A DNA stretch of 64,000 nt from Acidithiobacillus caldus ATCC 51756 (GTDB lineage: Bacteria > Pseudomonadota > Gammaproteobacteria > Acidithiobacillales > Acidithiobacillaceae), in contig NZ_CP005986.1 in the NCBI RefSeq assembly GCF_000175575.2, positions 1,808,714 through 1,872,713 on the forward strand, read 5' to 3'. Below are positions 2,381 through 44,145 of this stretch, piece by piece. The notes beneath the pieces are model-generated. The model worked only from the letters and a program-made list of their open reading frames with translations. It was not told the origin of the DNA and did no database searches. The position numbers and the translations under genes are program-made. Numbering within the stretch: the first letter of the stretch is position 1; every line of letters begins with the position of its first letter.

Positions 2381-2427
2381 CGGGATTCGATTTGGACTGC
2401 CACAGCGACTTATTGCCTACCCCCCTC

Positions 2428-2435
2428 GCTATACC
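2428..2435 (+). promoter_or_regulatory. Box A promoter element before topB
   Basis: GCTATACC within CCCCCCTCGCTATACCTAACC, 30 bp before the TTG start of the topoisomerase gene. It is one of about fourteen copies placed at similar distances from start codons, so TATACC is read as a -10 region. No good -35 TTGACA is visible. Confidence 0.6.
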
Positions 2436-7148: not shown

Positions 7149-8567
7149 GAGCTATGCTCGAATCTGGTGTACGGGAGGTCTACAACTAGCTTGAGGAGGG
7201 TGGCGCACTGTTGCTAGAAAAGGGTTTCTGGATCCGATTCGCAACGAATGAGGAGTGCGCCATGCAAGAGAGTACTGGTTTCGACGGAGGAATGGGAGAG
7301 TTGGGCCTGAACATCGAGGGCTTATTGCGGCGGTCCGCGCGCCAGCTGATCCAACAGGCCATCGAGGGCGAGGTGCAGGTGCTGCTGGAGGAGTATGCCG
7401 CGGTACGCATGGTCGATGGTCGCCGGGCCGTCGTGCGGAATGGATATCTGCCGGAGCGGGAGATCCTGACAGCGGTCGGCCCCGTGCCTGTACAGGTCCC
7501 CAAGGTGCGAGACCGCTCCGGTTCGGGCGTGGTCTTCCGTTCTTCCCTGGTACCGCCCTACGTGCGCAAGTCGCGGACCGTGGCCGCAGCGCTCCCCTGG
7601 TTGTACCTGCACGGGGTATCGTCGGGACGGATGCACGAGGCGCTGTCTGTTCTCCTGGGCGAGGAGGCCAAGGGGCTTTCTCCGGCCGTGCTGGGACGCT
7701 TGAAAGTCGAATGGGCGCAAGAGCATGCCCAATGGCAGCGCCGGTCTCTACAGGGAAAACGCTACGCCTATTGGTGGGCCGACGGGGTCTATACCCAGCT
7801 GCGGGCGGAGGACGATCCCCGGATGTGTCTCTTGGTCATTATTGGCGTGACGGCCGAGGGCAAGAAGGAGGTCGTGGCGGTCACCGACGGTTTACGGGAG
7901 TCCAAAGCCTCCTGGCTAGAGATCCTGCGGGACTTGCGCGACCGCGGGCTGCAGGAGGCGCCACTACTGGCCATAGGAGATGGGGCGATGGGTTTCTGGG
8001 CCGCCCTGGACGAGATTTACCCACAAACCCGTCATCAGCGCTGTTGGGTGCACAAGACGGCCAACATCCTCAACGAGCTACCGAAGCGCCTTCAGGGGAA
8101 AGCCAAGGCCGCCCTGCAGGCGATCTGGATGGCCGACACCCGTGAAGCTGCGGAGAAAGCCTGGCAAGCCTTCGTGCGGGACTACCAGGCCAAATATCCC
8201 AGAGCGGTCGCAAAGCTCGAGAAGGACCGGGACGTGCTGCTGACCTTCTTCGACTTCCCGGCAGAGCACTGGCGGCATATCCGCAGCAGCAACGCCATCG
8301 AATCGACCTTCGCCACCGTACGGCAACGCAGCAGCCGCACTAAAAACTGTGTCTCTCGAGCCACTTTCCTTGGCCTGAGCTACAAGCTCATCCAGCAGGC
8401 AGAGAGACACTGGCGCGGGATTCAGCATCCGGAAAGACTGCGCGAGCTCTTTGCCGGGGTGACATTTGTCGATGGGATGCCTGCCAACGAAACCCGGCTG
8501 GATCCTCAACAGGACGCCGCCTGAATCGTGTTAGCAAATGCTCATACACCAATCTTGACCATAGCTC
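7149..8567 (+). mobile_element. IS256-family insertion sequence, copy 1 (1419 bp)
   Basis: Bounded by imperfect inverted repeats that start GAGCTATG and share GGTGTA about 20 bases in (left GAGCTATGCTCGAATCTGGT, right read inward GAGCTATGGTCAAGATTGGT). It is flanked by the 9-bp direct duplication GCCGAAACC. It encodes one transposase on the plus strand. The second copy at 25361-26779 has the same length, and the sequence looks identical by eye. Confidence 0.93.
7262..8524 (+). CDS. IS256-family transposase
   Basis: A 420-residue transposase. ATG 7262 behind GAGGAGTGCGCC is preferred to the upstream TTG 7211. Residues carrying the DDE-type site are visible: the Asp in YWWADGVYTQL, the Asp in LAIGDGAMGFWAAL, and the Glu in SSNAIESTFATVRQRSSRTK, the characteristic C-terminal IS256 motif. 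RCWVHKTANIL is also typical. The gene looks intact and is duplicated at 25474-26736. Confidence 0.95.
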   Translation: MQESTGFDGGMGELGLNIEGLLRRSARQLIQQAIEGEVQVLLEEYAAVRMVDGRRAVVRNGYLPEREILTAVGPVPVQVPKVRDRSGSGVVFRSSLVPPYVRKSRTVAAALPWLYLHGVSSGRMHEALSVLLGEEAKGLSPAVLGRLKVEWAQEHAQWQRRSLQGKRYAYWWADGVYTQLRAEDDPRMCLLVIIGVTAEGKKEVVAVTDGLRESKASWLEILRDLRDRGLQEAPLLAIGDGAMGFWAALDEIYPQTRHQRCWVHKTANILNELPKRLQGKAKAALQAIWMADTREAAEKAWQAFVRDYQAKYPRAVAKLEKDRDVLLTFFDFPAEHWRHIRSSNAIESTFATVRQRSSRTKNCVSRATFLGLSYKLIQQAERHWRGIQHPERLRELFAGVTFVDGMPANETRLDPQQDAA

Positions 8568-17772: not shown

Positions 17773-17804
17773 ATGAGCGCAGGGATGGTGTGCCACGGCC
17801 TTTG

Positions 17805-17812
17805 GCTATACC
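17805..17812 (+). promoter_or_regulatory. Box A promoter element of the csf operon
   Basis: GCTATACC within CCTTTGGCTATACCTCATC, 28 bp before ATG 17840. The upstream 26 bp (TGTGCC...CCTTTGGC) closely match the region before the clamp gene at 29738. Confidence 0.65.
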
Positions 17813-17839
17813 TCATCGGGCAACAGAAAAGGATTGGAT

Positions 17840-20020
17840 ATGAGCAAGCTATTCACGTTGGACCGCTTCGCTGGAGCGGGGCTGCGCCTGCGGTCCTTGC
17901 AAATCCGTGTGGCGCAGGATGTCGATCACTGTCTGGTGGAACCCCTGCCGGAACCCGAAGCCATCACAAGCCGTGATGGGGAGGCGCTGTCCTGCCGGCG
18001 CAGCCTCTGCGGGTTCATCGAAGCGGGTACGGGGGTCGGGAAAACCATCGGCTATCTCGTTCCGCTTTTGGAGTATGCCAGCCAACACAAAAAGCGGGTG
18101 GGCATCAGCACCTACACCCGCTTTCAGCAGCGGCAGGTGGCCAAGGATCTGGCTCTGGTGCAGCAACGGATTTTCGACGGACTCGATCTCCAGGTCGCCA
18201 TCCGGCTGGGTCGGCAGAACTTTGTGAGCCGCGAGCGCGTCGCGTTCTGGCGGGAACGTCTGAAAGGAACGGATTTGCCCAAAGCGTGGGAGGATTTCTT
18301 CGCCTGGGTGGACCGTTGGGACGAATCCACCGATCCGCTGGACACCACCTTTCTCGCCTGGCGGGAGATTTATCCGGACATGCCGGAGTTTTCCGGCCTG
18401 GCGGAAGAGGATTTTGCGTTGCGGGAGGACGAGCCGCATGCGTGGTACGAGGCGCACGCCAAGGCGGCCCAGTCCGCCGATGTGGTCATCACCAACCACG
18501 CCACGTTGCTCATTCACGGTGCCCTGAAGACTGGGCTTCTGGGCGATCTCGACGCGGTGGTCGTCGATGAGGCGGATCAGCTGATCTCGGCGGCCCAGTC
18601 CCTGCTGTCCCGCCGCCTGCGGGCCTCGCTCGTCGTTCGCGACCTGCGTCGTCAGTATCCCGATCCCAGGGAGTTCGATTTCGCCGAGGCCCGACAGGAA
18701 GCTGACGCGATTCAGGACCTCCTCCGGGAACTGGGGGAGACGCTGGAGTATCGGGAAACCCTGCTGTCCGAGTGGCTAGCGCGTTTTCCCGAGGAAAGCG
18801 CGGCTTTACGTGGTCATCTGGATCGATTGATCCCGCTGCTGCCCAGTCCGTCTGCGCGCCGGAATTTTCAGCGGGTGCTGGCGGGCCTCGACGGCGGGGA
18901 AACCGTCGATGTCGTCTATTCGCCCATCCGCCATCTGCCCGCCTTCCATATCGACGATCTGGAGCCGGAGCGTTTCGTCGGGAAGCTGTTCGTGGCTTTT
19001 GGTGAGGACGAGGTTTTTCTCCCCCGCGTCGTCCTGGTATCGGCCACCCTGTCCGATCCCATGACGGAAAAGCTGGATTTCGTTCACCAGACTTTTGGTC
19101 TTTTTCGCCAGCCCTTCTTGACGAGCCGCTACGAACCGGACCGGTTTGGCTCCATGACTTTCGTCCTGCCCGATCCCCGGGTCGGTGCGCCTTTCCTGGT
19201 GGACGATGAGGACCTTTCCGAGCGGATGTGGAATCCCGAGTGGCTGGCCTATGTCGAGAACGCTCTCGGCATCGACGATCACCACAAGCTCCTGCTCACC
19301 CCCTCTTTCGAGGACATCGCCCGATGGATGGAGCGACGCGGGCTGGAAGTTGGGAAAACGCGGCTGCACGATGGCATCCTGTACCACCAGCCGGACGTGC
19401 CCGGAGCGAAGCTCGTGCAGCGCATCGAACAGGACCCGGACGTTCGGGTGGTCATCACCCCGAGCCTGTGGGAAGGCGTCAATCTGCGCCTCGATGGAAA
19501 GCCCTGGATGCAGGACGTGCTCATTTCGAGGGTTCCCATTCCGCCCTACTCGCCTCTGCTTCAGGAGCGGAAAATCGCCTGGCGGCTCGCGCGGCAGGCC
19601 GAGCAGGCCCGCAAGAAGCGGGAGCGTGGCGAAAAGGCCGTCTGGCGCACCGAAGAAGAGGTTCGTGCCGAACTCGTGTGGGAGTCGGCCAAGAAGGCCT
19701 TGCGGCGTCTGCGCCAGGGTCTTGGGCGCGGTATCCGCGACGAACGGGATACCGTTCGGGTGTGGATGCTGGATCCCCGCGTGCTTTTCCCAACGGACGC
19801 CTTGAACGGCCTGCTGTTTGTCGCCGCCGGTCTGGAGGACGGCGAGCATCTGGTGCAGGCCGCCGAAAAGATACCGGCGCATCCCGCCCTGCGGCGGTGG
19901 AGCCAGTCCGTGCCGGCGCGGTTCCGCGGGCAGCTATCCAATGCAGACATTTTCCTGCGCGACGGAACCCTATCGTCGCTGGTTGAATCGGAGGGGGCGC
20001 TGCTATGCACTACGTGCTGA
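17840..20020 (+). CDS. csf4: Csf4, DinG-family helicase of type IV CRISPR-Cas
   Basis: A 726-residue superfamily 2 helicase. ATG 17840 lies behind AAAGGA; TTG 17834 is possible. Walker A is EAGTGVGKTIGYL at about residue 62, motif II is VVVDEADQLISAAQ at about 242, motif III-like LVSATLSDPM at about 399, and the C-terminal motif VI region LRQGLGRGIRDERD at about 627. DinG-like helicases define type IV-A CRISPR systems, where they are needed for interference with plasmids. The next gene overlaps its end. Lacking an obvious Fe-S cysteine cluster, it resembles Csf4 rather than chromosomal DinG. Confidence 0.9.
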   Translation: MSKLFTLDRFAGAGLRLRSLQIRVAQDVDHCLVEPLPEPEAITSRDGEALSCRRSLCGFIEAGTGVGKTIGYLVPLLEYASQHKKRVGISTYTRFQQRQVAKDLALVQQRIFDGLDLQVAIRLGRQNFVSRERVAFWRERLKGTDLPKAWEDFFAWVDRWDESTDPLDTTFLAWREIYPDMPEFSGLAEEDFALREDEPHAWYEAHAKAAQSADVVITNHATLLIHGALKTGLLGDLDAVVVDEADQLISAAQSLLSRRLRASLVVRDLRRQYPDPREFDFAEARQEADAIQDLLRELGETLEYRETLLSEWLARFPEESAALRGHLDRLIPLLPSPSARRNFQRVLAGLDGGETVDVVYSPIRHLPAFHIDDLEPERFVGKLFVAFGEDEVFLPRVVLVSATLSDPMTEKLDFVHQTFGLFRQPFLTSRYEPDRFGSMTFVLPDPRVGAPFLVDDEDLSERMWNPEWLAYVENALGIDDHHKLLLTPSFEDIARWMERRGLEVGKTRLHDGILYHQPDVPGAKLVQRIEQDPDVRVVITPSLWEGVNLRLDGKPWMQDVLISRVPIPPYSPLLQERKIAWRLARQAEQARKKRERGEKAVWRTEEEVRAELVWESAKKALRRLRQGLGRGIRDERDTVRVWMLDPRVLFPTDALNGLLFVAAGLEDGEHLVQAAEKIPAHPALRRWSQSVPARFRGQLSNADIFLRDGTLSSLVESEGALLCTTC

Positions 20021-20688
20021 AAGTGCGCTGCAAAACGCCCATCGCCATGGGCAAGGCGGGTTTCTACTCCGGTCTGGACGCCGTGCTGCTGCATCGCCTC
20101 TGCCTCTGGACGGGGGGAGATACCGATGCGGCGCGGGAGCGCATGCCTCTGGAAAGGGACGGCGAACTCTGGGCCTGTGGGGGCGGCTACAATCCCCAGG
20201 ACGCCCTTTTTCTCTCCCGCACCGCACCCAGGCGGGTGCCCGTCTTTCGGCTTTTCCTGCGGGATGGTGGGTTTCGTGAAATGGCGGACTTGTCTCCGGA
20301 CGAACTGCAAACGCAGATCAACGCCTTTTTCGGTCAGGAAACCGAGGCGACGGGGGACGCCTATGCCGTCGTGCGCAACGCGCGGGAACTGCATTTCCGC
20401 TTCCGTTCCACGGATCCCGAGCGGGTTTTGTATCTCCTGCGTGTCGAGCCTTTCCTGGGGCCAGGGCATTCCGTGGGTTGGGGCGAGATCGAGCACGTGG
20501 AACTCGAGGAAAAAGGCGATGCCGATGCGCTCTGGGTGTACACCGATCCCCTGAACCGCTTGACCCGTCCCGTGCCCATGGACTGGACGGGTGTGGATGG
20601 TCAGGAATCCCTGTCGGCGCTGGAGGCCCCCTACTGGAGCATGCCCAAGGTGCCCGCTCGGGTGCCCTATCCGGTGGGGGTGCGCTGA
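20005..20688 (+). CDS. csf3: Csf3, Cas5-like RAMP subunit of type IV CRISPR-Cas
   Basis: A 227-residue protein starting at ATG 20005, overlapping csf4 by 16 bp. The N-terminal strand YVLKVRCKTPIAMG then FYSGLDAVLLHRL resembles the Csf3/Cas5 opening (basic strand, then a conserved LDGLL-like helix). A glycine-rich loop GPGHSVGWGEIEHVEL at about residue 151 is the RAMP signature. Csf3 caps the 5' handle of the crRNA in the effector complex. Assignment is by fold logic and operon position; lack of the strongest Cas6 features argues against it being the crRNA nuclease. Confidence 0.78.
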   Translation: MHYVLKVRCKTPIAMGKAGFYSGLDAVLLHRLCLWTGGDTDAARERMPLERDGELWACGGGYNPQDALFLSRTAPRRVPVFRLFLRDGGFREMADLSPDELQTQINAFFGQETEATGDAYAVVRNARELHFRFRSTDPERVLYLLRVEPFLGPGHSVGWGEIEHVELEEKGDADALWVYTDPLNRLTRPVPMDWTGVDGQESLSALEAPYWSMPKVPARVPYPVGVR

Positions 20689-21521
20689 TGGAACGGACAC
20701 CGTTACAGGAAGCCGTGTGGTTCTTTTACGAACGGCTGGGACATCGTTTTCCGGCCCCCGACTGGGGGGAGCAACGCGAGGACGTGTGCTCCATCTGCGG
20801 CACGGAGGGGCGGGGCTACGACGATGAACGCCCGAACCATCGGATTTTCCGGTGTCTCGCGTGCACGTCTTTCTATGCGCCGACACCCGACCATTTTCTC
20901 ACCACGGGTAAGGACCGGTCTTTCGCGGGCATCGTGAAGAATCCCTGGGTGCTGGACGCGAACGGACGTTTTCGTTCACCCATTGGCAAGGCGAGCCGCA
21001 AGGACGACGCCTTTGTGGTGAACGCCCGTGCCCATGGGATGGATTTTTACCCTGCGGAAAACCCATTTCAGACCTTGTACCGGGGAATCTACGATGGGGA
21101 GTTCGCTTTCCCGCTCCTTTTCGTCCGCCTTGGGCAGAACAAGATCGAGTCGATGCGGATGATGCGTTTGTCCACGTCCGACATGCTGTTTTTCTGGGAC
21201 AAGAGCGAAATGCGGACCTTCGATCTCGCGCTCGTCCGCGAGGCGGGCCGCTTGCCTTTGGGGGAAAAGCCCTGGTCCGACTGGGCGAGGTGGGGTATTC
21301 CCGAGGATCTTGCCGAGCGTGTGCGTTTTCTCAAGGACGTGCGCGGAAAAGCCCCTTTCCGGGTGCTGACCATGCACGGCGACAACCGGCTTTTCCTGCG
21401 GCAGGTGGTGGACCGCGAAGAGGCGAAAAGACCAAGGCCGAGAAGAAAAAGAGGAGCAGAAAATGAAGATTCTGGACGGAGAAGCACTGCACAAGAAGGC
21501 CTGGGATATCTGGGCGGGTAA
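20688..21521 (+). CDS. csf1: Csf1, large-subunit-like zinc-finger protein of type IV CRISPR-Cas
   Basis: A 277-residue protein; ATG 20688 shares a base with the csf3 stop. A CxxC pair at about residues 34-37 (VCSICGTEG) and another at about 56-59 (RCLACTSFY) form the zinc finger typical of Csf1. After this come KASRKDDAFVVNARAHG and several basic stretches, with a very basic tail (KRPRPRRKRG) that overlaps the next gene. Csf1 is the signature Cas8-like subunit of type IV effector complexes. Confidence 0.85.
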   Translation: MERTPLQEAVWFFYERLGHRFPAPDWGEQREDVCSICGTEGRGYDDERPNHRIFRCLACTSFYAPTPDHFLTTGKDRSFAGIVKNPWVLDANGRFRSPIGKASRKDDAFVVNARAHGMDFYPAENPFQTLYRGIYDGEFAFPLLFVRLGQNKIESMRMMRLSTSDMLFFWDKSEMRTFDLALVREAGRLPLGEKPWSDWARWGIPEDLAERVRFLKDVRGKAPFRVLTMHGDNRLFLRQVVDREEAKRPRPRRKRGAENEDSGRRSTAQEGLGYLGG

Positions 21522-21918
21522 GGCTTCGGTGGACGAGCGGGATTTCCTGTTCGCGCCGTACAGGGACGCCATCGTGTTCCGGTCCCGCTCGGAGCCCTTG
21601 CCGGCCACGCCGGAGGTCTGGCGGATGCGGTCCCTGCTGGCCCCGGTGATGCGCCGTGAGCATCGGGAGCGGGTCGTGAAGCCCAGGGAATTTCGCGGGT
21701 GGCTCGCGTCCCTGCTGGAGCGCCACGGCTGGGTCCTACGCTCCATCGAGAAGGTCGAGTCGATGGAGATGACCATCCGTCACGGTCGACGTCTCACGGT
21801 CGTCGATACGGTGTTCACCGCGCAGGTGGTGGATCGGGAAAACGCCGACCAGTCCTACCGGAGCGGCATCGGTCGGTACAAGGCTTTTGGCTGCGGAATG
21901 CTGATTCCGCAGGGTTGA
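21463..21918 (+). CDS. Short Cas6-like crRNA endonuclease (Csf5/Cas6e-like)
   Basis: A 151-residue protein starting at ATG 21463 behind GAGGAGCAGAAA, overlapping csf1 by 59 bp. DGEALHKKAWDIW then ERDFLFAPYRDAIVFRSR resembles the first ferredoxin-like domain of Cas6e, and GIGRYKAFGCGMLIPQG is the C-terminal glycine-rich loop of Cas6 proteins. It is shorter than usual (about 200-250 residues) and appears to lack the first strand. The I-E-like hairpin repeats of the arrays are the expected substrate. It is followed directly by the mini-array. Confidence 0.72.
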   Translation: MKILDGEALHKKAWDIWAGKASVDERDFLFAPYRDAIVFRSRSEPLPATPEVWRMRSLLAPVMRREHRERVVKPREFRGWLASLLERHGWVLRSIEKVESMEMTIRHGRRLTVVDTVFTAQVVDRENADQSYRSGIGRYKAFGCGMLIPQG

Positions 21919-22023: not shown

Positions 22024-22290
22024 GTCGTCCCCGCGTGTGCGGGGGAAATCCGAGGTGCAGTCGAGGCTCCCGCTACCAGCCGACGTCGTCCCCGCGTGTG
22101 CGGGGGAAATCCTAATGATGCTGAAAAGTTGGGGCAGGTCTGGTCGTCGTCCCCGCGTGTGCGGGGGAAATCCTCCTTGCAGTCCGCATTTCGCATTTGC
22201 TGCGTTTTCGTCCTCGCAATGTGCGGGGGAAGGCTTCGCATTTCGCATTTGCCGCGGGCATGGTCGTCCCCGCGTCGGCGGGGGGATTCG
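22024..22290 (+). CRISPR. CRISPR mini-array between cas6-like gene and csf2
   Basis: Three intact 28-bp repeats (22024-22051, 22085-22112, 22146-22173) start GTCGTCCCCGCG and end TGTGCGGGGGAAATCC. Two decayed repeats follow (22207-22234 and 22263-22290). The first three spacers are 33 bp, the last 28 bp. The repeat differs from the main array at two sites (TGTGC for TGCGC, AAATCC for AAAACC). The array lies inside the cas gene cluster and ends 46 bp before csf2. Confidence 0.88.
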
Positions 22291-22336: not shown

Positions 22337-23311
22337 ATGTCGATGTTGGAAACTCTGGATGTTTCGGGAAAACTGCTGGCCGTTTCGCCTATCGCGGTGT
22401 CGCCGCCCGGAGCGGCGTTTTCGTCGGACGACAAGGGGGCACCGCAGCGGCTTCCTTCGGTCGGCAAGAACCGCTACCTGCCGGCATCCACCTTTCGTCA
22501 CGTCCTGCGCTACGGGACCATACGGGTGGTGCAGGAAGCCATGAAAGCGCAGGGGAAAAGCTTGAGCCTGGACGCCCTGCTCATGCTGGACAAAGGGTTC
22601 TTTGCGCAGCGGAAAAAGGACAAGGGAACCCTCCCAGGCCGGAGCAACGGCAAAATGAAAGCCAAGGACGTCCTGCGCATGGAACAGGAAGTGCGGGAAA
22701 AGAACCCGCTGCTGGGTCTCTTTGGGGTGTGGACCATCCCGTCCATGCTGCGGGTGCGCAACGCCTTCCCGATCCCCAACGCGCAGGGGCAGACCTACAC
22801 GGTGGCGTCGGGCCTCGTGCGCAAGGCGCTGGAAGAGGATCTGGTGGACGCCTTGACCAAGGAGGATGCGGAGGACTATCTCCAGCGTCTCGACGACTGG
22901 TCGGAGGCCGACAAGGAGACCACGGGCCTCAAGCACATCAGCGAGCGCCCCTGGGAGGAGATCGTGGCTGGTGTGGAGTGCGAATGGGGCTACCAGATCC
23001 ACAGGTTTACGCCCTTCCAGTCCGGCGCGGTACTGGCTGGTCTGCGCTACTTCGCCAGCGATCCGGTCATCGGTGCGCACAAGGCGGTCGGGCGCGGTGA
23101 GCTGGCGATGGAACTGAACGCCAGCGTCATCCGCCAGGATATCCTGAACGGCCCCCAAAGCGCGGAAGCCGGAACGCTCACCCTGCGGCGCGGAGAATTC
23201 CGTGTGGATGGTCTGCTGGCCGAGCATCTATCCGAATTCGACCGGCTGGCGAAGGCGGGTTTTCCGGGGATGGATTTCCATTGCCTGCCCGCGCTGGTGG
23301 AGGGGGAGTGA
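22337..23311 (+). CDS. csf2: Csf2, Cas7-like backbone subunit of type IV CRISPR-Cas
   Basis: A 324-residue protein. ATG 22337 lies behind AAGAGGAG; the longer frame runs back into the mini-array and is not used. The N-terminal LLAVSPIAVSPPGA and NRYLPASTFRHVLRYGTIRV fit the Cas7 opening, where Leu-Pro-Ala/Gly-Ser-x-Arg is conserved. A long helical insert (about 70-190) is followed by CEWGYQIHRFTPFQSGAVLAGL and a Gly-rich AVGRGELAMEL. Csf2 polymerises along the crRNA spacer. It is separated from the other csf genes by the mini-array, so its expression may be set separately. Confidence 0.85.
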   Translation: MSMLETLDVSGKLLAVSPIAVSPPGAAFSSDDKGAPQRLPSVGKNRYLPASTFRHVLRYGTIRVVQEAMKAQGKSLSLDALLMLDKGFFAQRKKDKGTLPGRSNGKMKAKDVLRMEQEVREKNPLLGLFGVWTIPSMLRVRNAFPIPNAQGQTYTVASGLVRKALEEDLVDALTKEDAEDYLQRLDDWSEADKETTGLKHISERPWEEIVAGVECEWGYQIHRFTPFQSGAVLAGLRYFASDPVIGAHKAVGRGELAMELNASVIRQDILNGPQSAEAGTLTLRRGEFRVDGLLAEHLSEFDRLAKAGFPGMDFHCLPALVEGE

Positions 23312-23351: not shown

Positions 23352-24348
23352 GTCGTCCCCGCGTGCGCGGGGGAAAACCGTGGGCATCTCCCAATCGCGC
23401 GCGCAGGTGTGCGTCGTCCCCGCGTGCGCGGGGGAGAACTGGCTTCGAGACCGACGCGACCGTGGTGCAGGCCGTCGTCCCCGCGTGCGCGGGGGAAAAC
23501 CGGGATCAGCGGCGTACTCATCCACTTGTGGGCCGTCGTCCCCGCGTGCGCGGGGGAAAACCTTACAGTATGGCGCGGAACGCAGCCGGTGGCGTGTCGT
23601 CCCCGTGTGCGCGGTGGAAACCTGATCACCGGGACAAAACCGGGCGGCGGTCGTCCCCGCATGTGCGGGGGAAACCCGCTCCGGACTCCGCTCGTACCCG
23701 TCATTCACCGGCGTCCCCGCGTGCGCGGGGGAAAACCTCATCGCTATACCAATGCGCAAGGGGCGGACCCGGCGTCCCCGCGTGCGCGGGGGAAAACCCG
23801 CCTTGAGCTCCCTGTTCCGCCATGTGGAGGAGTCGTCCCCGCGTACGCGGGGGAAAACCGGGCGCTGCGGTGGGGGATGACATTTCCCAAAAGTCGTCCC
23901 CGCGTACGCGGGGGAAAACCGTACGCGGCTCATGCACACCATTCCAGCGATGGGTCGTCCCCGCGTGCGCGGGGGAAAACCGAGAAAGCAGGAGATTGGA
24001 GAGCGTTCTCTATTGTCGTCCCCGTGTACGCGGGGGAAAACCCCGAGCCAGCACCCGACTCTTGATAGCGAATCTGTAGTCCCCGCGTATGCGGGGGAGA
24101 ACCGCAACCGTACCGGACCCCGCGCCGCCCACGCTAGTAGTCCCCGCGTATGCGGGGGAGAACCAGTCGATATCAGCGGAAACGCTTCGGACATTGCGCC
24201 GTCCCCGCGTATGCGGAGGAGAACCACAAGCGGCCAGGTCTCCCGTCATGCTCAAGAAGTCGTCCCCGCGTACGCGGGGGAAAACCGTACACCATGGCGC
24301 AAATAATCGACTTTCTGGCCGTCGTCCCCGCGTGCGCGGGGGAAAACC
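23352..24348 (+). CRISPR. Main type IV CRISPR array, 17 repeats, 16 spacers
   Basis: 28-bp repeats starting GTCGTCCCCGCG and ending GCGCGGGGGAAAACC with a 61-bp period, so most spacers are 33 bp. Repeats start at 23352, 23413, 23474, 23535, 23596, 23650, 23710, 23771, 23832, 23893, 23954, 24015, 24076, 24137, 24198, 24259 and 24321. Repeats 5 and 13-15 carry several changes, spacer 5 is short (about 26 bp), and the last repeat is intact. The palindrome CCCCGCGTGCGCGGGG gives the stem-loop cut by Cas6. No cas1 or cas2 is nearby. Confidence 0.95.
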
Positions 24349-24835: not shown

Positions 24836-24942
24836 GGTGGCCTCCTTTTTTCCACCAAAATCGCAAGGTTAGAGTAACATAAAACGCTTTTGTTCAAAAA
24901 GTCGGGATTTTGTGCATGGAATGGTCACCGCCTTGCGGGTTC

Positions 24943-24950
24943 GCTATACC
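24943..24950 (+). promoter_or_regulatory. Box A promoter element upstream of helicase gene
   Basis: GCTATACC within GTTCGCTATACCCAGG, 96 bp before ATG 25046. A variant, GCTATACG, lies at 25004-25011 (35 bp before the start) and fits the usual spacing better. Confidence 0.5.
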
Positions 24951-24987
24951 CAGGAATACGCGAACGACGATCGGGTGCTGCTTCCGC

Positions 24988-25006
24988 TGACGAGACGATC
25001 TGCGCT
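24988..25006 (+). promoter_or_regulatory. Box B motif upstream of helicase gene
   Basis: TGACGAGACGATCTGCGCT, two differences from the consensus, ending in the GCTATACG variant of box A. Confidence 0.5.
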
Positions 25007-25360
25007 ATACGGGAAAAGACGGACAGGACGAGCAGGACCAACACGATGCAATTGACCGACGAACAGCAAAAGGCCGTTGCCATGGCCCAAAAAATGGAAA
25101 GCTTCAAGGTGTCGGCTCTTGCCGGTACCGGCAAAACCTCGACGCTGGTGGCTATCGCCAAGGCCATGGGCAATCGCCGAGGGCTGTACCTCGCATTCAA
25201 TGCCGCCATCGCTGCGGAAGCCAAGCAGCGATTCCGGGGTACGCAATGCGAGAGCCGGACTTTCCATTCCTTGGCCTATCGGGAGTGTGGCTACAAGTAC
25301 AAAAACCGTATGCATGCGCGGTTGACGGGGAGTTTCTTGCGCCGGCGTTTTGGGGTGAAC

Positions 25361-26779
25361 GAGCTATGCTCGAATCTGGTGTACGGGAGGTCTACAACTA
25401 GCTTGAGGAGGGTGGCGCACTGTTGCTAGAAAAGGGTTTCTGGATCCGATTCGCAACGAATGAGGAGTGCGCCATGCAAGAGAGTACTGGTTTCGACGGA
25501 GGAATGGGAGAGTTGGGCCTGAACATCGAGGGCTTATTGCGGCGGTCCGCGCGCCAGCTGATCCAACAGGCCATCGAGGGCGAGGTGCAGGTGCTGCTGG
25601 AGGAGTATGCCGCGGTACGCATGGTCGATGGTCGCCGGGCCGTCGTGCGGAATGGATATCTGCCGGAGCGGGAGATCCTGACAGCGGTCGGCCCCGTGCC
25701 TGTACAGGTCCCCAAGGTGCGAGACCGCTCCGGTTCGGGCGTGGTCTTCCGTTCTTCCCTGGTACCGCCCTACGTGCGCAAGTCGCGGACCGTGGCCGCA
25801 GCGCTCCCCTGGTTGTACCTGCACGGGGTATCGTCGGGACGGATGCACGAGGCGCTGTCTGTTCTCCTGGGCGAGGAGGCCAAGGGGCTTTCTCCGGCCG
25901 TGCTGGGACGCTTGAAAGTCGAATGGGCGCAAGAGCATGCCCAATGGCAGCGCCGGTCTCTACAGGGAAAACGCTACGCCTATTGGTGGGCCGACGGGGT
26001 CTATACCCAGCTGCGGGCGGAGGACGATCCCCGGATGTGTCTCTTGGTCATTATTGGCGTGACGGCCGAGGGCAAGAAGGAGGTCGTGGCGGTCACCGAC
26101 GGTTTACGGGAGTCCAAAGCCTCCTGGCTAGAGATCCTGCGGGACTTGCGCGACCGCGGGCTGCAGGAGGCGCCACTACTGGCCATAGGAGATGGGGCGA
26201 TGGGTTTCTGGGCCGCCCTGGACGAGATTTACCCACAAACCCGTCATCAGCGCTGTTGGGTGCACAAGACGGCCAACATCCTCAACGAGCTACCGAAGCG
26301 CCTTCAGGGGAAAGCCAAGGCCGCCCTGCAGGCGATCTGGATGGCCGACACCCGTGAAGCTGCGGAGAAAGCCTGGCAAGCCTTCGTGCGGGACTACCAG
26401 GCCAAATATCCCAGAGCGGTCGCAAAGCTCGAGAAGGACCGGGACGTGCTGCTGACCTTCTTCGACTTCCCGGCAGAGCACTGGCGGCATATCCGCAGCA
26501 GCAACGCCATCGAATCGACCTTCGCCACCGTACGGCAACGCAGCAGCCGCACTAAAAACTGTGTCTCTCGAGCCACTTTCCTTGGCCTGAGCTACAAGCT
26601 CATCCAGCAGGCAGAGAGACACTGGCGCGGGATTCAGCATCCGGAAAGACTGCGCGAGCTCTTTGCCGGGGTGACATTTGTCGATGGGATGCCTGCCAAC
26701 GAAACCCGGCTGGATCCTCAACAGGACGCCGCCTGAATCGTGTTAGCAAATGCTCATACACCAATCTTGACCATAGCTC
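25361..26779 (+). mobile_element. IS256-family insertion sequence, copy 2 (1419 bp)
   Basis: Same length and inverted repeats as the copy at 7149, and apparently the same sequence, but flanked by a different 9-bp duplication, GGGGTGAAC. The two copies are in direct orientation 18.2 kb apart and bracket the relaxase-to-CRISPR region. Confidence 0.93.
25474..26736 (+). CDS. IS256-family transposase (copy 2)
   Basis: A 420-residue protein, the same translation as the transposase at 7262-8524, with the same ATG behind GAGGAGTGCGCC. The DDE region and the C-terminal SNAIESTFATVRQR motif are intact. Confidence 0.95.
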   Translation: MQESTGFDGGMGELGLNIEGLLRRSARQLIQQAIEGEVQVLLEEYAAVRMVDGRRAVVRNGYLPEREILTAVGPVPVQVPKVRDRSGSGVVFRSSLVPPYVRKSRTVAAALPWLYLHGVSSGRMHEALSVLLGEEAKGLSPAVLGRLKVEWAQEHAQWQRRSLQGKRYAYWWADGVYTQLRAEDDPRMCLLVIIGVTAEGKKEVVAVTDGLRESKASWLEILRDLRDRGLQEAPLLAIGDGAMGFWAALDEIYPQTRHQRCWVHKTANILNELPKRLQGKAKAALQAIWMADTREAAEKAWQAFVRDYQAKYPRAVAKLEKDRDVLLTFFDFPAEHWRHIRSSNAIESTFATVRQRSSRTKNCVSRATFLGLSYKLIQQAERHWRGIQHPERLRELFAGVTFVDGMPANETRLDPQQDAA

Positions 26780-28007
26780 GGGGTGAACGGGGATCTGGCT
26801 GCCGCCATTGCGGAAACGGCCATGCGCACCATCCGTGCCTTTCTGCGCACCGTCGACCCGAAGATCGAAGCCCAGCATGTGCGCAGTAGCGATTATTGCC
26901 GGGTTATCGACAGGAAATTCCGTCTGGCCCTGGAGGAATATCGGTACATGCCGGATGGGGAAGATCGGGACCATCTGCGGCAGTATATCGCGCTTCTGGA
27001 GCAGCATCGGGCCACTTGCCATCAGATCGGAAAAGAAGGGCTATCGCTCGCACGGCGGGTCTGGGACGATATGGAAGACCCAAAAGGGGAAACCCCCATC
27101 GTCCACGACTTCTATCTGCGCGAATACGTGCTGTCGCAACCCGATCTGGGGCGCTGGTATCGGTATCTGCTTTTCGATGAAGCGCAGGACGCGGATCCGC
27201 TCATGCTCTTTCTCACCCAGTCGCAAAAGATCCCCGTGTTCTATGTCGGGGATGCGTACCAGCAGATCTACGAGTGGCGCGGTGCGGCCAACGCCATGGA
27301 GAGCCTCGACCTGCCTGAATCGACGCTGACCCTGTCCTTTCGCTTTGGTCAGGCGGTGGCGGACGACGCCAACGAGGTACTGGATTTGCTCGGTTCCAGG
27401 CTGTATCTGCGCGGGAATCCAGAAAAATCGTCGCTGGTCCGGATGGGGAAATGCGGAGAACTACCGTCTGCTGGGGGGAACGGTAGCCGCGCCATTGTCG
27501 TTCGCACCAACGCCGAGGCGGTACAGCAGACCCTGAGTGGGCTGATGTCGGGTCGCCGTGTAGGGCTGTGCGGTGCATCCTCCATCCGCAGTTTCCTGAA
27601 AGGATATCAGGACCTGATCGAGGGCAATCCCAGTGGCGAATTCGTGTATTTCCAGAATGAGCAGGAACTTCGGGAATTCGCCCAGACCGACATGGGCCAG
27701 GATCTGCGCATGCTGGTGAAGCTGGTCGATGAATACGGTATCGAGGAACTGGAGCGCATGGTGGAACGGGCCGTGGACCTCGACCGGAGCACGGGGCGTG
27801 TGGATATCTCCGTGACGACGGCCCACAAATCCAAGGGCCTCGAATTCGATCGGGTGTTCGTGAGCGAGGAACTGTTCAATCCCAAGCGCCTGGAAAGCGA
27901 TGAGGAAAAGCGCCTTTTGTACGTCGCCAAGACCCGCGCCAAGCAGGTGCTGTGCAACGCCCGTCCTTTGGTAGCGGCGTAAGCACCATCGCCCCGCCCT
28001 CGCCTTC

Positions 28008-34392: not shown

Positions 34393-34394
34393 TT

Positions 34395-34402
34395 GCTATA
34401 CA
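34395..34402 (+). promoter_or_regulatory. Variant box A before first antirepressor gene
   Basis: GCTATACA followed by TAGACGG, 36 bp before ATG 34438. The flanks (GCTCAGGGGG upstream, TAGACGG downstream) match those of box A at 35140. Confidence 0.5.
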
Positions 34403-34437
34403 TAGACGGCTCAAGGATGCAGCAGAAGGAATGCCGA

Positions 34438-35076
34438 ATGGGAGATGTGTTTCCTGTGGTTCGCCGGAAGATTGGTGATGAGGAAATGCTCGTTGTAAAC
34501 GCGCGGGATCTGCATGGGTTCCTGGATGTGGGTAAAGTCTTCGCGGCCTGGATTCAAGAACGTATCAAACAACACCGCCTAGTTGAAAACATCGATTTTT
34601 CTATATCAACGTGCTCAGCTGGTGGCAAAGGTTCCGCTGGGGGGAGACCAAAAACCGAATATCATCTATCGTTGAAATCGGCTATTTTCATCGTTGCTCA
34701 AGAAAAAAATTCGCGTCCTCTGGTTGTTCAGAAATTTATCGAATCCGTGCAGGATGTTTGCGCTCTGTGGGACGCCATTCGGAACATCGAACTGCCGGAG
34801 GACATTCCTCATCCCATGTATGTGTATGCCATAAAAAACCCGGATACGGGCAACATCAAGATTGGTATTTCCAAAGACCCGGAGGCCCGGCTGAAACAGC
34901 TACGGGTCGGTAACGACGCCGACCTGCGCCTGGTCCTCGTGGAAAAGATCGAGGCTCCAGACCGATTCCAGGACGAGCGATTTGCCCATCTGAAAAACCA
35001 GTACCTGCGGATCCGTGGGGAGTGGTTCCGATCGGGAGCACGGTTGACCACCCAAAACAGGAAAACGGTGAAGTGA
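34438..35076 (+). CDS. AntA/AntB-type antirepressor with T5orf172-like (GIY-YIG-related) domain
   Basis: A 212-residue protein; ATG 34438 follows AAGGA by seven bases. Residues 1-90 match AntA/AntB antirepressors (LVVNARDLHGFLDVGKVFAA, then WIQERI, then YHLSLKSAIFI). Residues about 120-200 (MYVYAIKNPDTGNIKIGISK, PEARLKQL) match the T5orf172/MUG113 domain, related to GIY-YIG nucleases. Such proteins relieve repressors in phages. It has a paralogue in the next gene, which shares only the N-terminal part. Confidence 0.78.
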   Translation: MGDVFPVVRRKIGDEEMLVVNARDLHGFLDVGKVFAAWIQERIKQHRLVENIDFSISTCSAGGKGSAGGRPKTEYHLSLKSAIFIVAQEKNSRPLVVQKFIESVQDVCALWDAIRNIELPEDIPHPMYVYAIKNPDTGNIKIGISKDPEARLKQLRVGNDADLRLVLVEKIEAPDRFQDERFAHLKNQYLRIRGEWFRSGARLTTQNRKTVK

Positions 35077-35092: not shown

Positions 35093-35139
35093 TTATCTGA
35101 GAGGTGACTGTACGTCGGCCATTCTTGCTCAGGGGGTTC

Positions 35140-35147
35140 GCTATACC
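35140..35147 (+). promoter_or_regulatory. Box A promoter element before second antirepressor gene
   Basis: GCTATACC followed by TAGACGG, 35 bp before ATG 35182. Confidence 0.6.
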
Positions 35148-35181
35148 TAGACGGCCCGATTGTTCTATGGAGGAAGTGCGG

Positions 35182-36105
35182 ATGGAAGCGTTGGTTCCGG
35201 TAACCCGGCAGATGATTGGTGGCGAAGAGGTCTTTGCGGTGAACGCGCGGGACCTTCATGCCTTCTTGATGAACCGAGACAAGTTTGCTACCTGGATAAA
35301 GGACCGTATCGCGCAATACGGATTCATTGAAAATCATGACTTTATAGGTTTTTCGGAAGTTTCCGAAAAACCCAAAGGTGGTCGTCCCAGCAAGGACTAC
35401 CTGCTCACCCTCGACATGGCCAAGGAACTCGCGATGGTCGAGCGCACCGAGCGGGGCCGGCAGGCGCGGCGGTACTTCATCGCTTGCGAAAGGGAACTGC
35501 ACCGGCTCCAGGCGCAGACGAAAGGCCGTGGGCTCATTACCGAAAGTCCGCTGGACCAGTACCTGCACGGCATGGACCGCGATCTCATCGTGCGCGAGTT
35601 GCGCTTTCTCACCGAGGTGCAGAAGACCGTCCCCGGGATGCACGAGAACCAGGCTTTCCTGAGTGCGCTGGCCTACACCGAACTGCGGCTCGGTATCGAA
35701 CTGACTCCCCTCTTTCCGCCCGAGGCCCTCGCCCTGCCCTGCCCGCATCAGGAGGTCGAGTTGCGGCCGACGGACATCGCCAGGCGCTTTGGTGTTGTCT
35801 ATGCCAGCGGCAAAGAGGACGGTGCCACCGTCAACCGGATTCTCGCGGATCTGGGTTTTCAGACGCACACCAAAGGCGAACCGCTCGACTGGACCCCGAC
35901 GGACAAGGGCTGGCCCTTCGCCGTGGTCAAGGAGGTACCGAACCGGTCCCTCAAGGCGGGCCGGACGATTCGCCAGTTATTCTGGCGTATAGGGCTCATT
36001 GAACATGCCGACGTGCGCGAGGCGCTCGATCGCAAAGGCCGCGAGCGGCAGGCGCGGTTGGCCTCGAGCCGCAAGCGCGGGCAGCGTGCGTTGGATTTGC
36101 ACTGA
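35182..36105 (+). CDS. AntA/AntB-type antirepressor with C-terminal DNA-binding region
   Basis: A 307-residue protein. ATG 35182 sits eight bases after GGAGG; ATG 35167 overlaps that site and is rejected. Residues 1-75 repeat the AntA pattern (VFAVNARDLHAFLMNRDKFA, WIKDRI, DYLLTLDMAKELAM). A helical middle is followed by LRPTDIARRFGVVYASG and a basic tail (RKGRERQARLASSRKRGQR), suggesting a second helix-turn-helix. Probably a transcriptional switch for the element. Confidence 0.75.
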   Translation: MEALVPVTRQMIGGEEVFAVNARDLHAFLMNRDKFATWIKDRIAQYGFIENHDFIGFSEVSEKPKGGRPSKDYLLTLDMAKELAMVERTERGRQARRYFIACERELHRLQAQTKGRGLITESPLDQYLHGMDRDLIVRELRFLTEVQKTVPGMHENQAFLSALAYTELRLGIELTPLFPPEALALPCPHQEVELRPTDIARRFGVVYASGKEDGATVNRILADLGFQTHTKGEPLDWTPTDKGWPFAVVKEVPNRSLKAGRTIRQLFWRIGLIEHADVREALDRKGRERQARLASSRKRGQRALDLH

Positions 36106-44137: not shown

Positions 44138-44145
44138 GGTATAGC
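44138..44145 (-). promoter_or_regulatory. Box A promoter element before trbF
   Basis: On the minus strand GCTATACC within CCCCTCTGCTATACCAAGG, 30 bp before ATG 44108. Confidence 0.6.

What the first reader, a model, noticed from the sequence alone, without database searches (positions are those of the whole stretch)
23738..23770. CRISPR spacer 7 carries the element's own promoter box
Spacer 7 contains TCGCTATACCAATGCGC, i.e. box A in its usual CGCTATACC form. Box A precedes most genes of this element. This suggests the protospacer lies in the promoter of a gene on a related element. Type IV-A systems lack a nuclease effector and can silence by binding, so a promoter target would be effective.
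Basis: partly seen in the sequence, partly recalled or inferred. Interest (0 to 1): 0.8.

Follow-up and report, generated by a model that had tools for sequence, protein, structure and literature searches.

The report
CRISPR spacer with ICE promoter box
One of about 20 CRISPR memory sequences on a bacterial mobile element contains the short promoter signal that this element and relatives in another genus use, which suggests, but does not prove, that the CRISPR silences rival elements at their promoters; no matching target was found in any searched database.

Summary
Spacer 7 (23738-23770) carries CGCTATACC at 23742-23750. GCTATACC is the most over-represented 8-mer in the window (14 copies against 0.44 expected). 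The promoter reading of this box is well supported: it has a bipartite form, YGCC-N10-GCTATACC, with 19 copies in this genome against 0 in a reversed control, and recurs 18 times (control 1) in another genus of the family, including upstream of the orthologous topoisomerase gene. It precedes about a dozen transcription units here, not "most genes".

The host is A. caldus ATCC 51756 (inferred) and the element ICEAcaTY.2, whose type IV-A CRISPR is published.

No protospacer was found in plasmids, phages, viral contigs or genomes searched. The best near-match, 26/33, is a chromosomal galE coding motif of chance quality. Promoter origin rests on statistics: the box appears in any of 20 spacers with p about 0.004, and cross-trained flanks fit box sites about 1.3-6 times better than background. 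Three other spacers have real targets: two plasmid relaxase genes, one on the cell's own plasmid, and one noncoding plasmid site. None is at a box A promoter. I put promoter origin at about 0.5.

The parts
23738..23770 (+). Spacer 7 (A7), 33 nt, TCATCGCTATACCAATGCGCAAGGGGCGGACCC
23742..23750 (+). Box A core CGCTATACC inside spacer 7, at spacer positions 5-13
23352..24348 (+). CRISPR array A: 17 repeats of 28 nt, 16 spacers
22024..22290 (+). CRISPR array B, between cas6 and csf2, with degenerate last repeats
17834..20020 (+). csf4 (CasDinG helicase) of the type IV-A system
   Evidence: PADLOC typeIV_DinG E 3.6e-95
20005..20688 (+). csf3-like (Cas5)
   Evidence: PADLOC Csf3_0_IV E 7.9e-16
20478..21521 (+). 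Unassigned ORF in the position where csf1 (large subunit) is expected; start not settled
   Evidence: no hit in Pfam, PADLOC or NCBIfam, only chance hits among PDB sequences
21463..21918 (+). cas6/csf5
   Evidence: Pfam PF08798 E 2.1e-11; PADLOC Cas6e and typeIV_Cas6
22337..23311 (+). csf2 (Cas7)
   Evidence: PADLOC Csf2_0_IV E 9.8e-28
17791..17812 (+). Bipartite box A site (YGCC-N10-GCTATACC) about 25-30 nt upstream of csf4: the CRISPR genes appear to be driven by the same promoter type
2414..2435 (+). Bipartite box A site upstream of the topoisomerase gene; the ortholog in G021 has the same signal
23678..23709 (+). Spacer 6 (32 nt): perfect match in the resident plasmid C3, corresponding to the MobQ-type relaxase gene of its relatives
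24104..24136 (+). Spacer 13: perfect 33/33 match to a stretch of plasmid pTcM1 without annotated genes
23441..23473 (+). Spacer 2: 30/33 match to mobF of Acidiphilium plasmid pACRY05

Best explanation
Spacer 7 is a genuine spacer of a type IV-A CRISPR on ICEAcaTY.2. It most likely derives from the box A promoter of a related, unsequenced integrative element. The crRNA would carry the same sense as the promoter's non-template strand and bind over the box, so the nuclease-free Csf complex would block transcription initiation, with CasDinG extending the silencing. Shown: the spacer, the box, its promoter-like distribution, the type IV-A genes, and that sister spacers target mobile plasmids. Inferred: the source element, the promoter position of the target, and the silencing itself.
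For: GCTATACC is the top over-represented 8-mer of the window, and its chance of landing in any of 20 spacers is 0.0036, against 0.12 if protospacers were drawn from this kind of ICE DNA. The bipartite box is concentrated in these elements: 19 against control 0 in the own genome, mostly at 1801-1856 kb, and 18 against control 1 in G021 of another genus. A flank model trained on G021 sites puts the spacer in the top 2-18% of background depending on the columns used, likelihood ratio about 1.3 to 6; trained on own sites and tested on G021, about 2 to 3.5. Type IV-A genes are present. Published work finds that IV-A complexes repress at promoters even without CasDinG (PMC11551745).
Against: No protospacer found in any searched collection. 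Another flank test was neutral: 0.41 bits against mostly coding CGCTATACC sites. The GC-rich 3' half of the spacer lacks the T-rich stretch typical of box A leaders. Resemblance to the nearest single box site is not significant (shuffle p 0.11). None of the three spacers with known targets hits a box A promoter or an ICE. Outside these elements, the CGCTATACC copies inspected mostly read as Arg-Tyr-Thr codons.
Confidence: 0.5

Rival explanations
1. Chance: spacer 7 was taken from a coding region of an unsampled plasmid, phage or other element, where CGCTATACC encodes Arg-Tyr-Thr. The crRNA acts as an ordinary anti-plasmid guide.
For: The three identified targets of this array are on mobilizable plasmids, two inside relaxase genes. 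Genome-wide, CGCTATACC is not enriched (30 against control 33), and the non-element copies inspected mostly read as R-Y-T. The spacer is open in that frame (HRYTNAQGADP).
Against: It requires a 0.001-0.004 coincidence with the top 8-mer of the window, and the flanks also lean towards box sites.
Confidence: 0.4
2. Spacer 7 targets a galE-type gene (UDP-glucose 4-epimerase), coding motif LRYFNAAGADP.
For: 26/33 identity, 25/29 over positions 5-33, in two genomes of the family; translated HRYTNAQGADP against LRYFNAAGADP.
Against: Such a match is expected by chance: BLAST E about 0.04 per genome for the whole array, and other stretches of the array score alike in other genomes. The 7 mismatches fall at codon positions 1, 2, 3, 1, 2, 1, 2 and change conserved residues while synonymous sites are kept, the opposite of homologous coding divergence. 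Seed positions 2-4 mismatch and the flanking TTG does not resemble the known PAMs.
Confidence: 0.05
3. Self-regulation: crRNA 7 binds box A promoters of its own ICE and tunes its genes.
For: The csf4 gene itself has a box A site, and natural self-targeting by a IV-A crRNA is known in Pseudomonas oleovorans (PMC11551745).
Against: The best own box site matches only 22/33, with mismatches at spacer positions 1, 4 and 5; the reversed decoy gives 21.
Confidence: 0.03

Closest known systems
Type IV-A CRISPR of ICEAcaTY.2 / ICEAcaSM.2 (Acuna et al. 2013, PMC3826726)
   Same: This is that locus: two arrays and five cas-like genes. The paper reports spacers resembling pTcM-1 family and Acidiphilium plasmids, as recovered here.
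   Different: In the passages I read, the paper does not describe the promoter box or spacer 7's content.
Type IV-A1 CRISPR of Pseudomonas oleovorans (PMC11551745)
   Same: csf genes with CasDinG and nuclease-free repression; promoter targets work even without CasDinG.
   Different: The promoter targets there were designed; the natural self-target described was pilN. Here the natural target of spacer 7 is unknown.

Membership tests
Type IV-A CRISPR-Cas | CasDinG (csf4) helicase | tested here: met
   PADLOC E 3.6e-95; the NCBIfam csf4 hit is below its curated cut-off
Type IV-A CRISPR-Cas | csf2 (Cas7), csf3 (Cas5) and a Cas6 with array | tested here: met
   NCBIfam csf2 hit below its curated cut-off
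Type IV-A CRISPR-Cas | csf1 large subunit | tested here: inconclusive
   ORF 20478-21521 sits in the expected place but has no family hit
Type IV-A CRISPR-Cas | Usually no own adaptation genes (from general knowledge) | tested here: met
   No Cas1 (PF01867) in the whole genome; the control search rings in 9 of 14 genomes
Spacer from a box A promoter of a related element | Protospacer just upstream of a gene on a box A element | tested here: inconclusive
   No protospacer found in any searched collection; absence is weak evidence because other A. caldus strains' ICEs were not available
Spacer from a box A promoter of a related element | Contains the box core beyond chance | tested here: met
Spacer from a box A promoter of a related element | Upstream YGCC ten bases before the box | not testable with these tools
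   It would lie outside the 33-nt protospacer, just before its 5' end

The most novel reading that the evidence does not exclude
An ICE-borne type IV-A CRISPR aims a guide at the shared promoter signal of its own ICE family, while the sequence around the core spares its own copies, so that rival ICEs with the same regulon can be silenced at the promoter.
Probability: 0.4. Interest if true: 0.6.

Novelty: new member of a known kind. Interest (0 to 1): 0.36.

Why it matters
If true, it would be a natural case of promoter targeting by a nuclease-free CRISPR in a conflict between related integrative elements, including how such a guide avoids its own element. Independently of spacer 7, the box marks a shared, element-wide promoter class in what look like integrative elements of at least two genera of the family.

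Tried and rejected
Spacer 7 in plasmids and phages gave chance hits only. An exact 18-mer in viral contigs gave none. Masked patterns gave 19 genome and 60 viral loci; extended over 33 nt, none looked like a protospacer. The G011 hit (25/33) lies in a sequence that reads as coding and was treated as chance. galE was considered and rejected as chance. Similarity to the own sites at 44145 and 47303 was not significant (shuffle p about 0.15-0.2). Related repeats or csf4 relatives in viral contigs: none; csf4 in other family genomes at E 1e-20: none. The paper most relevant to Acidithiobacillia type IV systems (PMC8658065) is not held.

Full report
Where it is. The window is G000:C1:1808714-1872713, in a 2,987,045-base genome of 4 contigs. 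The cas genes are csf4/CasDinG (17834-20020), a csf3-like ORF (20005-20688), an unassigned ORF (20478-21521), cas6 (21463-21918) and csf2 (22337-23311). Cas1 is absent from the genome. Array A has 17 repeats of 28 nt; array B lies at 22024-22290.

The observation. Spacer 7 is TCATCGCTATACCAATGCGCAAGGGGCGGACCC at 23738-23770. It holds CGCTATACC at 23742-23750. With arrays and the duplicated IS masked, GCTATACC is the most over-represented 8-mer of the window (14 against 0.44). A Markov model gives 0.0036 for its presence in any of the 20 spacers and 0.00095 for the 9-mer; drawing 20 protospacers from the ICE window itself gives 0.12 and 0.057. Genome-wide the 9-mer is not enriched (30 against 33 for the reversed pattern), but 10 of the 30 copies, counting the spacer, fall within 1806-1856 kb.

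What box A is. Many sites are preceded by YGCC ten bases upstream. YGCC-N10-GCTATACC occurs 19 times in this genome (control 0) and 18 times in G021, a member of another genus (control 1); the other genomes are at background. GCTATACC sites in G021 cluster at about 526-627 kb and 2076-2306 kb, which suggests two elements. The site at 2414-2435 precedes the topoisomerase gene; the G021 site at 566832 precedes a gene starting with nearly the same protein sequence. Most bipartite sites are followed by a plausible start codon within tens of bases, including csf4. This supports an element-wide promoter class. Whether TATACC acts as a -10 box and YGCC as a factor-binding element is inferred, not shown.

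Looking for the target. Spacer 7 alone against plasmids and phages gave only chance hits. An exact 18-mer found nothing in viral contigs. A pattern masked at every sixth base with 3 mismatches found nothing relevant in 29 family genomes or 369 genomes of the class. Masked patterns in GTDB genome contigs and viral contigs gave hits that do not extend over the spacer. The best near-match is 26/33 in galE of two family genomes (L010, L016), reading LRYFNAAGADP where the spacer would read HRYTNAQGADP. Its quality is what the array query gives by chance, and six of its seven mismatches fall on first and second codon positions of conserved residues, so I judge it a coincidence. In this ICE and about 235 kb of the G021 regions, no spacer matches clearly better than its reversed decoy.

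Controls from the same array. Spacer 13 matches an unannotated stretch of pTcM1 33/33. Spacer 6 matches a MobQ-type relaxase gene, 31 of 33 in pLAtc3 and 32 of 32 in the resident plasmid C3. Spacer 2 matches Acidiphilium mobF 30/33. The bases 5' of these protospacers are GAT, AAA and GAA. So the array targets mobile plasmids and the searches can find real targets, but none of the three is at a box A promoter.

Do the flanks fit a promoter? A first model against mostly coding copies was neutral (0.41 bits), partly because the comparison copies were chosen to carry the leading C. Models trained on one genome's sites and tested on the other's, with the 8-mer excluded, give the spacer likelihood ratios of about 1.3 to 6, with 1.4-18% of background scoring as high. 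A recurring downstream pattern, AA-N-N-CG, which the spacer shares, occurs in 8 of 96 box sites against 0.5% of background, but I noticed it while ranking sites by similarity to the spacer, so I do not count it separately.

Judgement. Weighing the box coincidence (ratio about 16 to 34 if all spacers came from such elements, less if only a few did), a modest flank ratio, the failure to find a target and the plasmid bias of the identified targets, I put promoter origin at about one half. Published work shows that type IV-A complexes silence from promoters (PMC11551745), so the proposed mechanism is plausible, but nothing here shows that crRNA 7 acts on any promoter.

Noticed in passing
23678-23709; G000:C3:7663-7694 (L022): Spacer 6 matches the cell's own 27.5-kb plasmid perfectly over 32 nt (relaxase gene in its relatives), with AAA as the 5' flank, so a resident plasmid coexists with a matching type IV-A guide, which fits silencing rather than destruction.
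   Followed up: partly
window box sites; G021:C1 526-627 kb and 2076-2306 kb (L180-L191): YGCC-N10-GCTATACC is a promoter-type signal shared by element-like regions of two genera; a second form, GCTATACCAANNCG without YGCC, also recurs.
   Followed up: partly
7211-8524 and 25423-26736: Two copies of a Mutator-family transposase; the second appears to interrupt a UvrD-like helicase (24890-25429 and 26783-27982).
   Followed up: no
34393-35076 and 35104-36105: Adjacent AntA/AntB antirepressor-domain genes with very similar box A upstream regions.
   Followed up: no
L022 about 4266, L024 about 1904, L169 (G000:C1 about 1806361): Two resident plasmids and a site just outside the window share GCTATACCA followed by a CCCCTTTATCTTGC-like segment, possibly a transfer-origin-like element.
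   Followed up: no
22174-22263: Array B's last two spacers share GCATTTCGCATTTGC between degenerate repeats.
   Followed up: no
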